IMG/VR virus record: IMGVR_UViG_3300017917_001467
Coordinates: 1-25,593 of that record
Direction: 5' to 3' (one strand)
DNA: 25,593 nucleotides
Source: a virus
Below are positions 6,137 to 25,272 of the stretch, piece after piece (position 1 is the first letter of the stretch; each line of letters begins with the position of its first letter). The notes below the pieces were generated by a model. That model did not search any database. It was given only the letters and a program-made list of their open reading frames with translations, and was not told where the DNA came from. A program made the position numbers and the translations under genes.

Positions 6137-7495
6137 TTATCCCATATTCTCTACATACTTCTTATGTAGTAATTTTTTCTCTAATCCTTCTCCGTTTTTA
6201 CTATCCTTTGTCGCACTCATACCATCCGCAGAATTAGCTGCAAATACATCCATAACTCCATGAAAGGTATCAATCTTTGCAGGGAAGGTCATACCATCTG
6301 GTCCAAATCGGTTCTTTACAATGTGAATACGACCCGTGTTAGATAACTTATCTTTTGTTTTCCTACTCACACTCATAATGAAATCCGCAGTTTGAACTTT
6401 CTTATATGAATCTCCAACCGAATCGGCTTGAATAACCTCATGCTCAATCGCTGCTCTATTTGTTTGAGTTGCTGTCCAAATCGGTATTGAAGTTGCTCCA
6501 CTTAATCCTCTTAGTTCTTCGTAAATACCACCCAATTCTGCATATGCACCATCTCTACCTCTATCCGATGATTTTAATAAATCCGCATAATCTATAATGA
6601 TTAAGTGTGGGTTATATCCACTTGCTCTTAATTTTTCAATATGAGCTGTAAGAGTTTTTGCAGATGCATACTGTGGTGGATAGTATTTAATACGAACCCT
6701 TCCAGGAACTGCTTTGATTTTTCTGATAATCTCATCTTTTCTTTCCTTATGTTCTGATGTTTGAATACCGGTTAGGATTGTGGTGTATCTCTGTCCAACA
6801 TAGTTTTCGGATAATTCCAAACTATAATGTAGAACATTCATACCTCTTTTCATTCCTTCACATGCTATCTTTGATAGAAACCATGTCTTACCGATACCCG
6901 ATGGTGCCATTACCACTCCCAATTCACCTGGTCCTAAACCACCATCCATCAATTCATCTATAACATCCCATCCTGTTGATACGGAGTTTCGTTTAACATC
7001 CTCCATAATTACCTCAAAGTTTTCAATATAATCCAACCCCAAATCGGATTCAACTCCTACTTTGGATGCTGCGTTCATTATATCAACGATTTTATCGTAT
7101 TGACCTATTTTAAGTAAATCAACTGATTTTAGCAATGCATCTTTAACTTTTTGGTTTTTACAGAATGTAAGATATTCTTTCTTTACATATTCCAAATCAG
7201 TAGAACCAACTTGCAGATATACATTTTTTAACTGCTCTATTGTGGTCTGTTTCAGTATCTTATCTTCTATCTCTCCTACTTTAATCTTAAACACTTCCAT
7301 TGTAGGAATGTTTCGGTATTCATTAAAGTAATCAATTACAGAATTTACAATCCATTTATTTGCGTCTGATTCAAAAAATTCTGCTTTAGTAATTTCAGAT
7401 ACTTGCTCTAAAAACTTTACATCCGTAACTAATGAGGCAACAACTTTAGATTGATACGATTGTCCATATTTGACTAGTGTATCTGTTGTTTCCAT
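6137..7495 (-). CDS. Replicative DNA helicase, DnaB/T4 gp41 type
   Basis: This 452-residue protein has a helical N-terminal domain (about 1-150) and a RecA-like motor. Walker A is APSGIGKT (197-204), SLELS (225-229) matches the DnaB H1a region, Walker B is LIIIDYAD (298-305), and a glutamine switch follows in TATQTNR. By family it forms a hexamer that unwinds the replication fork on the lagging strand and partners with a primase, which is not visible in this window. It is the last gene of the block that starts with SSB and overlaps the preceding small gene by one base (TAATG). The C-terminal tail (about 425-452) is charged and probably disordered. Recombinase identity is unlikely because of the DnaB-type motif spacing. 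Confidence 0.85.
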   Translation of the reverse strand: METTDTLVKYGQSYQSKVVASLVTDVKFLEQVSEITKAEFFESDANKWIVNSVIDYFNEYRNIPTMEVFKIKVGEIEDKILKQTTIEQLKNVYLQVGSTDLEYVKKEYLTFCKNQKVKDALLKSVDLLKIGQYDKIVDIMNAASKVGVESDLGLDYIENFEVIMEDVKRNSVSTGWDVIDELMDGGLGPGELGVVMAPSGIGKTWFLSKIACEGMKRGMNVLHYSLELSENYVGQRYTTILTGIQTSEHKERKDEIIRKIKAVPGRVRIKYYPPQYASAKTLTAHIEKLRASGYNPHLIIIDYADLLKSSDRGRDGAYAELGGIYEELRGLSGATSIPIWTATQTNRAAIEHEVIQADSVGDSYKKVQTADFIMSVSRKTKDKLSNTGRIHIVKNRFGPDGMTFPAKIDTFHGVMDVFAANSADGMSATKDSKNGEGLEKKLLHKKYVENMG

Positions 7496-12311: not shown

Positions 12312-12342
12312 CAAATATACGAAAAATATTTTAGAACTCCAA
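12312..12342 (-). promoter_or_regulatory. Bacteroidetes-type promoter abutting the 109-aa gene
   Basis: On the minus strand TTG (12340-12342) is followed after 20 bp by TATATTTG (12312-12319), preceded by CG. The -7 element is separated from the ATG at 12307 by only GTTT, so the message should have little or no leader. It shares 17 consecutive bases (plus strand CAAATATACGAAAAATA) with the polymerase promoter. Confidence 0.65.
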
Positions 12343-12823: not shown

Positions 12824-14923
12824 TTATGCTTTTTTTCTTACATCTACTTTTGACGCCACGCATTGTCTTAAACCTTTTCCTAGTTTTTTCTCAACTTTTT
12901 TGCTTTCACCAGATGTTCTCCAACTATCCTCTGCTAATGAAACTGTTCCTGATTCGTTTGTGATTTCAATATAACCAGTAGTTGCATTTATTCTACATCT
13001 TTGTAACAAATGACGGTTTAATTTATCTCTACCCTCTTTTGTTTTTATTTCACCTTTAAAATCACTTAATTCTGCCAAACATCCTCTAAAATCTTCTGGT
13101 CTACTTGCTCTTATACCTGTAACTGCTGCAAGGTTTTTATCAAAGTTTTCAACCATTAAATCAAAATGCATTGAATGCATTACAGTTGATATGTATGCCG
13201 AAGTATGAGGTCCATTGTTTCCATCTTTATCAGGAAATCCTTTCACTTTATCTGCTTCCGTAATAGAACGTACTACATCATTGTGAACCGCTCCAACTAA
13301 ATCTTTTTCATCATTTTTGTTTTTAATTGCAGATGAAATTGCTGGTGAACCAAAATTTATATCAGAATACTTTTCTATTTTCTTTCTTTCCTGTGCAAAC
13401 TCACCAACTTTTGTTAAAATTTTACCAAAAGTACCATATGAAACCGATTTTCCATTGGATTCTTCTTCTTTCATATATGTTTGTACCGATGTAAGAAGTT
13501 CTTTATTTGTTATAGATTTTAAATCTAAATTATTATTTAATGCCCATTTTTGAAATCCTTTATGCATTTTTAATGAATCCATATAAGGTTTCATTTCTTC
13601 TATTTCAGTAAATTTTACAAAATCGTCATCTAATTTTAATGATGAAAATGCTCTGTTTGTTGCCTGTTTACCATCTGCACATTTAGTAATACCATCATCT
13701 ATTGTAGATATAACTTCATTGGATACTTCCTCTCCAAAATTATTTTTAATAACACTTAACATATATTCTGGTGTTGTGTTAGCCCACATATCTTCCAAAT
13801 TATTTTGTTTTTTGTTTGTAATATGGAATACAGTTGTTCTTTCTTTACCATCTTTTCCAATTACCATAGTATCATTAAACCCTAATTTTTCAAAAGCTCT
13901 AACTTCTCTTTCATAATGTTCAATATCATCCTTATTGCCAGATTGTTTTGCTTTTTCTAATTGGTCGTATAAGTGTGTTTTTATTGAATCATCTACTCCA
14001 CCTTCTTTTGGATTTGATTGTATTACGTGATAATCTTTTGATGTATCTATATTACTACCACTTTTAACTTCATTCAAAGTTGCAAATGCACCATCAAATG
14101 AAGCATCTGTCCAATCTCTTAATGCTTTATCATTTTTGCCAAATCCTTGCTTACCACCCTTATGCCACAATGAATCTGGATTATCTTCTAATCTTTGTTT
14201 TTCTAAATCACCAAACACTTTTCTTGCTGCAATATATTCAACCGCTTCATCTGTGGAAACTCCCAATTGTTCCGAAATGGTTTTTATTTTTTTAGCATTT
14301 ACTTTTGCATTTGAAATTATATTTTGTTTTTCAGTTTCAATTAACTCATTATTTTGTTTACGCCACTTTTCATATCCACCGTTTTTGAATTGATTCGCAG
14401 TACTTGTCAATCTGGCTTCACCATAAGATGGAACTGAACCACCTGCACCTGCAATTCCCATATCCCTCTGTTTGTTAGTTTCATCTGATGCATTTATAAC
14501 TAAAGAAATATCTCCTTTATTTAAAGTTTGACGTATTTCTTCTTGTTGTTGATTTAGTTTTCTTAATTGTGGTTTGGTTGGTGATACTTTTTCCTTATCA
14601 AAAATATTAGGTGTTGGTTCTTTTTTCTTATTAGTTTCTTTTTCTTTTTCTATTTCTGCAGGAGTTGGTTTGACGTGTGCATCTGGATTAAAATTTTTAA
14701 CTGTATAAACATTTCCAGTTTTTTTGTTTTTTACAATCTCATCCTCTTTTAGAATAGTAAACCATTTACTTGCTTTTTGGGCAAGTTCGGTTGGTGAAGA
14801 TACTTTATGCTCTTTTAGAACTTCGATTAACTCTTTAACCTGATGTTCTTTTGTAAGGTCAATAATACCCTCTGGAACTCTGTAACTTAATTCCAATAAT
14901 ATTTCGTCAAAATTTGGAAACAT
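12824..14923 (-). CDS. Large putative virion/internal protein, 699 aa, unknown
   Basis: This long protein has an N-terminal helical module of about 60 residues (MFPNFDEILLELSYRVPEG, then ELIEVLKEH and ELAQKASKWF), a charged linker rich in K, E, P and T (about 65-125), and a long, mostly helical body of about 550 residues. I recognise no enzyme family. The first residues contain ILLEL, compatible with the (I/L)xE cleavage consensus of T4-type prohead proteases. The two genes upstream have clearer leaders of this kind, so an internal or core head protein is plausible. A histidine cluster in HTSAYISTVMHSMHFD near the C-terminus might bind metal. It starts 3 bases after the 328-aa gene stop and is probably cotranscribed with it. 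Function remains open. Confidence 0.6.
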   Translation of the reverse strand: MFPNFDEILLELSYRVPEGIIDLTKEHQVKELIEVLKEHKVSSPTELAQKASKWFTILKEDEIVKNKKTGNVYTVKNFNPDAHVKPTPAEIEKEKETNKKKEPTPNIFDKEKVSPTKPQLRKLNQQQEEIRQTLNKGDISLVINASDETNKQRDMGIAGAGGSVPSYGEARLTSTANQFKNGGYEKWRKQNNELIETEKQNIISNAKVNAKKIKTISEQLGVSTDEAVEYIAARKVFGDLEKQRLEDNPDSLWHKGGKQGFGKNDKALRDWTDASFDGAFATLNEVKSGSNIDTSKDYHVIQSNPKEGGVDDSIKTHLYDQLEKAKQSGNKDDIEHYEREVRAFEKLGFNDTMVIGKDGKERTTVFHITNKKQNNLEDMWANTTPEYMLSVIKNNFGEEVSNEVISTIDDGITKCADGKQATNRAFSSLKLDDDFVKFTEIEEMKPYMDSLKMHKGFQKWALNNNLDLKSITNKELLTSVQTYMKEEESNGKSVSYGTFGKILTKVGEFAQERKKIEKYSDINFGSPAISSAIKNKNDEKDLVGAVHNDVVRSITEADKVKGFPDKDGNNGPHTSAYISTVMHSMHFDLMVENFDKNLAAVTGIRASRPEDFRGCLAELSDFKGEIKTKEGRDKLNRHLLQRCRINATTGYIEITNESGTVSLAEDSWRTSGESKKVEKKLGKGLRQCVASKVDVRKKA

Positions 14924-14926
14924 ATT

Positions 14927-15913
14927 TTAGAAACTACTTTTTAATTTGTTATACCCTTCTTCTCCGTATTTTTCTTTTGCAGTATTCAATAATGCGGTTC
15001 TAATATCTCTTCTTTTATTTATTAGGTTCATTGGCATACTTCCAATTTTCATATGTTGTGCATCAATTTTTTGTAATTGTTTAATTGCCTTCTCATCACC
15101 AATCATTTTTGCCAACTCTATAACTGCATTTGTGTGTTGGTTAGTATCTGTTAGTTTTTCAATTTTTGATACAGCTTTATCTAAATCATTACCTTTTGGT
15201 TTTTTACCAGTTGTGAATACTTTTTCTAACTTTTCTTTTGCCCAATTTTCCAAATCACTGATTGTGTATTGGTTATTTCTTAACTTATCATCATGTTCGG
15301 ATTCACCGGATAATCTAACAATACCTTTTAATAAGTTTGCGTATGGCATTAGTTGTATTCCTAATTTTTCATCCGGGTCTTTCTCACCTTTCATCAACAT
15401 CTTTGCGATATCGTAAGTTTTTGTTCCCTTTGTATCATCTAACCATTTCTTTGCCGCATTTTGATATTTGTAATCTGGATTGATTGTTAAATCATCAGAT
15501 TTTTTATTAACTGAACTATTAGAATATTTAGAAACCAATTGTTGTGCGTATTTGTTTTGTGGGTTACCACTAACTGCCGTCATCACATCCAATGGTTTTA
15601 ATTTTTTGTTTTCAATATCTTTTGCCAACATAGAAAGATTAACACCATTCTCATCTGCCCAACCTGCTACTGCTTGTGGACGGAGACCTGTTTTTGATGC
15701 AATATTATTCACCGTTGCCATTGGGTCCTCTCCTTTATAATCTTTAGAAAATACTGATACTCCTTTTGGTTTTGATGCTGCACCTGCGGTTGTAGTTTTA
15801 CCTGCAATTTTAACCTTTGTATCTGGTCTCAATTTATGGTTCTTAGCATATGTATCAAATGCTTTCTGTGTTGTGAACTCAATCTCGTTGATTAGTGATT
15901 TTAACTTTATCAT
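14927..15913 (-). CDS. Putative internal head protein with leader, 328 aa
   Basis: This 328-residue protein begins MIKLKSLINEIEF, very like the start of the next gene upstream (MIRLKDLITESII). Both resemble T4 capsid-targeting leaders, which end in (I/L)xE and are cleaved by the prohead protease. After it comes AFDTYAKNHKLRPDTKVKIAGK, then a basic helical region with possible DNA-binding character (ASKTGLRPQAVAGWADENG resembles a helix-turn-helix). The rest is charged and helical. No catalytic residues are evident. It starts 9 bases after the ADP-ribosyltransferase gene and runs directly into the 699-aa gene. I infer packaging in the head; a scaffold or DNA-organising role is an alternative. 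Confidence 0.6.
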   Translation of the reverse strand: MIKLKSLINEIEFTTQKAFDTYAKNHKLRPDTKVKIAGKTTTAGAASKPKGVSVFSKDYKGEDPMATVNNIASKTGLRPQAVAGWADENGVNLSMLAKDIENKKLKPLDVMTAVSGNPQNKYAQQLVSKYSNSSVNKKSDDLTINPDYKYQNAAKKWLDDTKGTKTYDIAKMLMKGEKDPDEKLGIQLMPYANLLKGIVRLSGESEHDDKLRNNQYTISDLENWAKEKLEKVFTTGKKPKGNDLDKAVSKIEKLTDTNQHTNAVIELAKMIGDEKAIKQLQKIDAQHMKIGSMPMNLINKRRDIRTALLNTAKEKYGEEGYNKLKSSF

Positions 15914-15922
15914 TTTATTATT

Positions 15923-16552
15923 TTATTTTTTTCCTTTTGTATAAATATCTGTATCAGTTTCAGTATCGGTAATTTTTTCTATATTTATGAAATTTTCATC
16001 AAATAATACATAATCATTTCTTGTACCAGATATGCTTCTTTTTAATCCATATATGCCATTTTTAAGTAAAAATAAAGAAGCGTTTTTATCACCTCCTAAT
16101 AAACGAGATAGAGTTTTATAGAATAGATATCCATTATAATCAAATTCAATAAGTTCATAATCGTTAAAATCTACTTTTGGTAAGGATTTATTTTTAGTAT
16201 AGTTATAATATGAATTAAATTCACCAATATCAAACTTTTTATTTTTGAGTTTGTATATTCCTTTAAGAACTTTTATAACTATATCTTTTTTTACTGGACT
16301 ACTTATATCAAGCAAAGTATCTTGTTTAGAGCCCTTACCTTTAAACAAAGTTGTTTGATACAAATATTTCCCATAAACCTTAACAGGTTCTTTTAAATTG
16401 GATAAATATATTCCCCAACCATCAATTTGCTTTCCACTTCCACTACCCAATTTTGATATGTCAAACTTATAAAATTTACTATTACTGGCATGGTAAGCAG
16501 TTAATTCTTCATTTATAATACTTTCTGTAATTAAATCCTTTAATCTTATCAT
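15923..16552 (-). CDS. Putative ADP-ribosyltransferase (ART-PolyVal-like) with capsid-targeting leader
   Basis: After an N-terminal leader MIRLKDLITESIINEE, this 209-residue protein reads LTAYHASNSKFYKFD (His21), then DGWGIYLSN (45-52), and near the end NDYVLFDENFINIEKI. This order, with a YH(A/G)S strand, an F..FD element, G.GIYLS and a closing YVLFD...I.I strand, is that of the ADP-ribosyltransferase domains found in phage polyvalent proteins. They transfer ADP-ribose from NAD+ to a target. T4 Alt, a packaged and injected ADP-ribosyltransferase, is the functional precedent. The leader has two candidate prohead-protease sites (ITE at 8-10, INE at 13-15). The gene is very AT-rich and has its own promoter-like site (16582-16612). 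The catalytic glutamate is not certain from sequence alone, so an inactive homologue is possible. Confidence 0.62.
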   Translation of the reverse strand: MIRLKDLITESIINEELTAYHASNSKFYKFDISKLGSGSGKQIDGWGIYLSNLKEPVKVYGKYLYQTTLFKGKGSKQDTLLDISSPVKKDIVIKVLKGIYKLKNKKFDIGEFNSYYNYTKNKSLPKVDFNDYELIEFDYNGYLFYKTLSRLLGGDKNASLFLLKNGIYGLKRSISGTRNDYVLFDENFINIEKITDTETDTDIYTKGKK

Positions 16553-17860: not shown

Positions 17861-17890
17861 CAAATATACGAAAAATAGTTGATATTACAA
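17861..17890 (-). promoter_or_regulatory. Bacteroidetes-type promoter abutting the polymerase gene
   Basis: On the minus strand TTG (17888-17890) is followed after 19 bp by TATATTTG (17861-17868), preceded by CG. Only six bases separate the -7 element from the ATG at 17854, so the transcript would have a leader of about three bases or fewer. It gives the polymerase a promoter of its own between the structural blocks. Confidence 0.65.
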
Positions 17891-25026: not shown

Positions 25027-25272
25027 TTAGTAATTTTTATCCAAATAAGAATCTATATCTTTTGTAGATAAGTTTTGAGCCTTTAGTCCCTGTCTACCTG
25101 CTCTTAAAACCGCTTCCATATCTTTATCCCATTTTGCCCAATAATCGGCGAGTTCCGGGTCTCTTTTTCTAATATTAGCAATAAATTTGTCTTCTTTTTT
25201 TTCTGCTTTCGCTTTAAAAAACAAACTAACTAATTTATCAAATACTCCTTCTGATATAATTCTTTTTGGCAT
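25027..25272 (-). CDS. Small tail-region protein, 81 aa, unknown
   Basis: This 81-residue protein is charged and helical and begins MPKRIISEGVFDKLVSLFFKAK. It lies between the chaperone-like gene and the tape measure, 20 bases before the latter. I do not recognise the family. The N-terminal IISEG fits the (I/L)xE-(A/G) prohead-protease consensus, so it may be a packaged or structural component, but that signal alone is weak. No membrane segment or cysteines are present. The gap of 30 bases upstream has no promoter that I can see. Confidence 0.6.
   Translation of the reverse strand: MPKRIISEGVFDKLVSLFFKAKAEKKEDKFIANIRKRDPELADYWAKWDKDMEAVLRAGRQGLKAQNLSTKDIDSYLDKNY

What the first reader, a model, noticed from the sequence alone, without database searches (positions are those of the whole stretch)
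12824..16552. Packaged-effector cassette: ADP-ribosyltransferase and neighbours with capsid-targeting leaders
Two adjacent genes start MIRLKDLITESI (ADP-ribosyltransferase-like) and MIKLKSLINEIE (328 aa); the third starts MFPNFDEILLELS. T4 internal proteins and Alt carry similar short basic-amphipathic leaders ending in (I/L)xE that direct them into the prohead and are cut by gp21. I infer these proteins are loaded into the head and injected, with the ADP-ribosyltransferase acting as an Alt-like effector from an unrelated gene.
Basis: partly seen in the sequence, partly recalled or inferred. Interest (0 to 1): 0.7.

Follow-up and report, generated by a model that had tools for sequence, protein, structure and literature searches.

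The report
Phage head-loading tag on effector genes
Two neighbouring genes of an uncultured T4-like phage, one of them ADP-ribosyltransferase-like, begin with a ten-residue tag that matches the known T4 "load me into the head and cut me here" signal, and relatives carry the same tag on about a hundred unrelated proteins, so many packaged proteins of such phages can be predicted from sequence.

Summary
Two adjacent genes (209 aa, 328 aa) begin MIRLKDLITE and MIKLKSLINE. Related phages reuse this leader: about 230 proteins fall into about 110 clusters unrelated behind it. Only M1 and E10 are invariant, and synonymous codons vary. A scan not requiring E10 still found E there in 47 of 58 genes (8% expected). 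A permuted leader gives 0 hits against 56. Leader genes crowd the gp21-type prohead protease gene, which is present in both near-complete relatives. Key positions (4, 7, 8, 10) match the four mapped by mutation in the T4 capsid-targeting sequence. I conclude they are cleavable head-targeting propeptides (0.82).

The third gene (699 aa) lacks the short leader. It has a different N-terminal domain of about 60 aa, also shared among unrelated proteins and ending LKE60, exactly where a homologue carries the short leader instead. The "ADP-ribosyltransferase" is only a weak ART-PolyVal match below the curated cut-off. It keeps His21 and Tyr49, but the strand-5 Asp of the H-Y-D triad aligns with a Tyr, so activity is uncertain. 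Four of five intact ART-PolyVal genes found independently of the leader carry one. Packaging and cleavage are inferred, not shown.

The parts
16523..16552 (-). Leader MIRLKDLITE of the 209-aa protein; inferred cut after E10
   Evidence: same register as T4 IPIII MKTYQEFIAE and gp24 MAKINELLRE; leader family statistics
15923..16552 (-). 209-aa protein, leader plus ADP-ribosyltransferase-like domain (H21 and Y49 present, strand-5 Asp position is Tyr168)
   Evidence: Pfam ART-PolyVal E 9.7e-5, 23.6 bits against a cut-off of 31.2; alignment with leader-bearing ART-PolyVal proteins
15884..15913 (-). Leader MIKLKSLINE of the 328-aa protein; inferred cut after E10
14927..15913 (-). 328-aa protein; middle part homologous to a 744-aa protein of relative G001, C-terminal part homologous to small leader-bearing proteins
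   Evidence: 48% identity over residues 63-267; L194, L190, L035
14744..14923 (-). N-terminal domain (residues 1-60) of the 699-aa protein, a second, longer modular leader ending ILKE60
   Evidence: shared N-terminal domain on proteins with otherwise unrelated bodies, LxE-type end in most of them; L078 has MIKLKDLLRE in its place
12824..14923 (-). 699-aa protein conserved at this locus in close relatives; VKNKKTGNVY module directly after residue 60; function of the body unknown
   Evidence: no significant Pfam, PHROG or NCBIfam match

Best explanation
The 209-aa and 328-aa proteins are internal head proteins of a T4-like myovirus. Their first ten residues are a capsid-targeting propeptide: residues 4 and 7 dock the protein on the prohead core during assembly, and an S77 (gp21-type) protease cuts after E10, releasing the mature protein among the packaged DNA. 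On infection the proteins would enter the host with the DNA and act before any phage gene is expressed. The 699-aa neighbour is probably packaged too, through a different ~60-residue N-terminal domain cut after LKE60. The gene pair is an accessory cassette beside the conserved 699-aa gene: relatives have the polymerase and the 699-aa homologue side by side without it. Shown by computation: the leader family, its conserved residues, its modularity, the protease in relatives, the co-localisation. Inferred: docking, cleavage, packaging, ejection, and any enzymatic effect.
For: Leader-bearing proteins of at least 60 aa fall into 110 clusters unrelated behind the leader; in 108 of them only M1 and E10 are invariant and I2, K3, L4, K5 nearly so (E10 was part of the selection). 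A scan that did not require E found E at position 10 in 47 of 58 ORFs, background 8.2%. 56 leader hits against 0 permuted in 24 records. Prohead protease S77 in both near-complete relatives G001 and G002 and in 16 of 30 leader records, mostly fragments. The leader sits on genes flanking the protease in G001 and G002. In 9 of 18 records a leader gene lies within 6 kb of the protease, 3.9 expected, p = 0.006. T4 register: IPII/IPIII MKTYQEFIAE, gp24 MAKINELLRE; in IPIII the first 10 residues suffice, residues 4 and 7 target, residues 8 and 10 govern processing (PMC9026906). Four of five intact ART-PolyVal genes found by domain in these phages, not by leader, begin with the leader or a variant (MIKLLQILKE, MIKLKVLLFE, MIKLKDLLNE, MIRLKNIVNGILAE).
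Against: No virion proteomics exists for this phage. The window is a fragment with no head genes, so its own protease is not seen. About half of the leader records show no S77 match; most are fragments, but a 125-kb and a 207-kb record are among them. Some leader proteins resemble lysozymes, peptidases or tape-measure segments, so the destination might in some cases be the tail. Catalytic competence of the 209-aa protein is doubtful.
Confidence: 0.82

Rival explanations
1. The leader is a virion-targeting tag for another part of the particle (tail tube or baseplate), or a docking motif for another phage protein, and is not cut.
For: Some cargo matches lysozyme, M23 peptidase and tape-measure families. 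In the window the genes lie between the polymerase and the replication genes, not in a head module.
Against: (L/I)xE at the exit of the leader is conserved beyond need for docking and is restored further downstream in some genes that lost E10, such as MIKLKDLLNPPVLNEG and MIKLKNILNNKILNES. Leader genes cluster with the prohead protease.
Confidence: 0.1
2. The 5' end is spread by DNA recombination as a translation-start cassette and the peptide itself has no function.
For: Tandem genes with near-identical 5' ends occur.
Against: Synonymous codons vary while residues stay fixed; the leader is kept across 110 unrelated clusters and E10 also in a scan that did not ask for it; T4 head proteins share the register without sharing the DNA.
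Confidence: 0.04
3. The 209-aa protein is packaged but is not an active ADP-ribosyltransferase: it binds a host target or NAD-derived signal with a degenerate ART fold. (This concerns the cargo's activity and is compatible with the best explanation of the leader.)
For: Strand-5 Asp of the H-Y-D triad aligns with Tyr168; score below the Pfam cut-off.
Against: Strand 1 (YHAS) and strand 2 (GWGIYLS) motifs are intact; the C-terminal half aligns poorly, so the third residue may lie elsewhere.
Confidence: 0.45

Closest known systems
T4 internal proteins IPI-IPIII and their capsid-targeting sequence (gp21-processed)
   Same: Ten-residue N-terminal leader, hydrophobic at positions 4, 7 and 8, E at 10, unrelated proteins behind one leader, S77 protease in relatives
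   Different: Sequence of the leader (MIKLKDLLxE instead of MKTYQEFIAE); far wider and more enzymatic cargo; packaging not shown experimentally
T4 Alt (packaged ADP-ribosyltransferase)
   Same: ART-like domain behind a short, presumably cleaved N-terminal leader
   Different: Pfam match is to ART-PolyVal, not to Alt; much smaller; third catalytic residue not found at the aligned position
ART domains of polyvalent proteins (Pfam ART-PolyVal)
   Same: His in strand 1 and Tyr in strand 2; predicted early injected effector
   Different: Single-domain 209-aa protein, below the family cut-off, strand-5 Asp replaced; delivery predicted by a targeting leader rather than by fusion to head proteins
Head genes of Flavobacterium phage immuto (MW353175)
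   Same: T4-like head module with S77-type protease; several genes start with related leaders ending (L/I/V)xE, one (MRLLELLREA) carrying the same cargo family as leader proteins here
   Different: Leader variants differ (MENFDLKKFLVEN, MKKQILSEQ, MRLLELLREA); no published virion data found in the library

Membership tests
T4-type capsid-targeting propeptide | Short N-terminal leader with targeting residues at positions 4 and 7 | tested here: met
   L4 and L7 in both genes and L/I in the leader family
T4-type capsid-targeting propeptide | (L/I)xE processing site with residues 8 and 10 | tested here: met
   I8-x-E10 in both genes; E10 in 47 of 58 in an unbiased scan
T4-type capsid-targeting propeptide | gp21-type S77 prohead protease in the same phage | tested here: inconclusive
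   Absent from the 25.6-kb fragment; present in relatives G001, G002, G003
T4-type capsid-targeting propeptide | Same leader on proteins of the head module | tested here: met
   In relatives: genes flanking the protease in G001 and G002; enrichment p = 0.006
T4-type capsid-targeting propeptide | Protein found in the head with a cut N-terminus | not testable with these tools
   Needs virion mass spectrometry
T4-type short leader on the 699-aa gene | Leader of about 10 residues ending (L/I)xE, conserved in homologues | tested here: not met
   MFPNFDEILLE in the window, MYPDFEEALDD in L003/L004; a ~60-aa domain ending LKE60 instead
Pfam ART-PolyVal | Score above the curated cut-off | tested here: not met
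   23.6 bits against 31.2
Pfam ART-PolyVal | Catalytic His (strand 1) and Tyr (strand 2) | tested here: met
   H21 in YHAS, Y49 in GWGIYLS
Pfam ART-PolyVal | Asp in strand 5 (H-Y-D triad, PMC5512222) | tested here: not met
   GFDG/GYDS of relatives aligns with G-I-Y168-G of NGIYGL; alignment weak there
Pfam ART-PolyVal | ART fold | tested here: inconclusive
   AlphaFold mean pLDDT 34.6 and 34.7
Alt/VIP2 ART family | Match to the family profile | tested here: not met
   No Alt or VIP2 family among Pfam, PHROG or NCBIfam matches
Polyvalent protein | Several unrelated domains in one polypeptide | tested here: not met
   One ART-like match in 209 aa

The most novel reading that the evidence does not exclude
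MI(K/R)LKx(L/I)(L/I)xE is a portable address tag: in a large, mostly uncultured group of T4-like phages, unrelated enzymes (ART-like, Acb1-like 2H phosphoesterase, Nudix, HD, zeta/AAA kinases, RimK-like ligase, Mom) have repeatedly acquired it and are carried ready-made in the head to act on the host in the first moments of infection. A second, ~60-residue leader ending LxE serves larger proteins and is interchangeable with it at the same junction.
Probability: 0.6. Interest if true: 0.75.

Novelty: new variant of a known kind. Interest (0 to 1): 0.64.

Why it matters
Which phage proteins enter the host with the DNA is known for very few phages. A leader that can be read from sequence turns this into a list of predictions across uncultured phages, points to early anti-immune enzymes among hypothetical genes, and can be tested at once in a cultured relative.

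Tried and rejected
AlphaFold of the 209-aa protein, alone and with five divergent rows, gave no usable model, so no fold search was run. Sequence searches of the 209-aa protein found no relative in IMG/VR, only marginal hits in phages and plasmids, and none in PDB. NCBIfam gave nothing. Searching the literature for the leader sequence itself found no paper; searches for capsid-targeting-sequence papers found T4, SPN3US and P1 work but no survey of this leader. "LxE anywhere in the first 25 residues" was dropped as main evidence because 49% of background ORFs have it.

Full report
The window is the whole IMG/VR record (25,593 bases), a fragment of a T4-like myovirus: family A polymerase, UvsX/RecA, DnaB-like helicase, gp32-like protein, ribonucleotide reductase, gp53-like baseplate protein, tape measure. 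All three genes of the finding are at the stated coordinates on the minus strand.

Leader family. In the fetched loci, 230 proteins of 60 aa or more carry this leader or a close form. Behind the leader they fall into 110 clusters without detectable similarity, 78 of them singletons. Aligning 108 representatives leaves only M1 and E10 invariant; E10 was part of the selection. To remove that bias a second scan asked only for MIKLK(D/N) followed by two hydrophobic residues. In loci found only by that scan, 47 of 58 ORFs of 60 aa or more have E at position 10, against 8.2% in other ORFs. Several exceptions regain (L/I/V)xE a few residues later. In 24 records the leader pattern occurs 56 times and a permuted one never; most of these records were chosen for having a leader, so the informative part is the multiplicity. 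Codons vary synonymously.

Link to the head. Prohead protease S77 is present in the two near-complete relatives G002 (145 kb) and G001 (148 kb) and in G003, and in 16 of 30 leader records, mostly fragments. In G002 and G001 leader genes flank the protease and lie beside the gp22-like scaffold and major capsid genes, the position of T4 genes 67/68. Over 18 records with both, 9 have a leader gene within 6 kb of the protease, against 3.9 expected with circular shifts, p = 0.006.

T4 comparison. From the T4 record, IPII and IPIII start MKTYQEFIAE, gp24 MAKINELLRE, gp22 MLKEQLIAE. PMC9026906 reports that the first ten residues of IPIII suffice for packaging, that residues 4 and 7 matter for targeting and 8 and 10 for processing. 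The leader here is in exact register: L4, L/I7, L/I8, E10.

Cargo. Among 108 representatives Pfam finds, one member each, RimK, Mom, NUDIX, RNase_T, HD, zeta toxin/AAA, ADP-ribosyltransferase exoenzyme, 2'-5' RNA ligase and the anti-CBASS protein Acb1, M23 peptidase, phage lysozyme, a poly(A)/CCA-type nucleotidyltransferase and others. The 2H/Acb1-like protein is in G001, a relative of the window. Searching 50 records for ART-PolyVal by domain found five intact genes; four begin with the leader or a variant, none of them the gene through which the record was found.

The 209-aa protein. ART-PolyVal at E 9.7e-5, below the curated cut-off. Without its leader it ranks third among 20,000 shuffles against a profile of the related ART-PolyVal proteins; profile comparison gives probability 37% over 43 N-terminal columns. 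PMC5512222 gives the active site as H, Y, D. H21 and Y49 are present; the position of D is Tyr168 in my alignment, which is weak there. Two structure predictions failed.

The 328-aa protein. Residues 63-267 match a 744-aa protein of G001 at 48% identity. Its C-terminal part matches small leader-bearing proteins. Function unknown; most likely a packaged protein.

The 699-aa protein. Close relatives keep it beside the polymerase but lack the 209-aa and 328-aa genes there, so those two form an accessory insertion. Its early LxE is not kept in L003/L004. Its first ~60 residues form a domain shared with proteins whose bodies are otherwise unrelated. It usually ends in LxE (YLNE, YLAE, YLQE, ILKE, VIKE). 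In L078 the short leader MIKLKDLLRE stands exactly where ILKE60 stands here, followed by the same D(D/E)IVKNKKTGNVY module. I read this domain as a second, longer propeptide; this is inference.

What is known and what is new. The idea that T4-like phages load varied proteins through a capsid-targeting sequence is established (PMC9026906, PMC3012670), as is the proposal that phage ARTs are often packaged (PMC9503650, PMC5512222). New here, as far as the held library shows, is a specific, widely reused leader with about 110 unrelated cargo clusters, its exact register with the T4 mutational data, its presence on ART-PolyVal genes found independently, and the interchange of two leader types at one junction. 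A cultured phage, Flavobacterium phage immuto, has related leaders and a T4-like head module and makes the claim testable.

Noticed in passing
window 25027-25272 (minus strand): 81-aa protein starting MPKRIISEGVF beside the tape measure gene; the homologue in G002 starts MSKKIKITEAG. Both look like short leaders ending IxE.
   Followed up: partly
window 12315-12326 and 17864-17875 (minus strand): Repeated upstream motif TTTTTCGTATATTTG containing TATATTTG, like the Bacteroidetes -7 element TAnnTTTG (from memory); suggests a Bacteroidetes host.
   Followed up: partly
G002:77376-82883; L150:532-2199; immuto26A_183: Large proteins with a GRFQPFHxGH nucleotidyltransferase (NadR/NMNAT-like) motif in G002 and L150, and one annotated NadR in immuto; in G002 and immuto some kb upstream of the head module; in L150 behind an ART-like domain.
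   Followed up: no
L030:3394-3921 (G001): Leader-bearing 2H phosphoesterase resembling the anti-CBASS protein Acb1; a packaged anti-immune enzyme if the leader works as inferred.
   Followed up: partly
G009 (368,758 bases), positions 6416 and 368072: The same leader sequence near both ends of a 368-kb phage record, probably a terminal repeat; this record also has a 367-aa frame with a split S77 match.
   Followed up: no
immuto phage MW353175: 1803, 103806, 117631, 118632: Four genes share another recurring start (such as MENFDLKKFLVENKLT, MADNFNLRSFLTENKLT), which may be that phage's own version of the leader.
   Followed up: no
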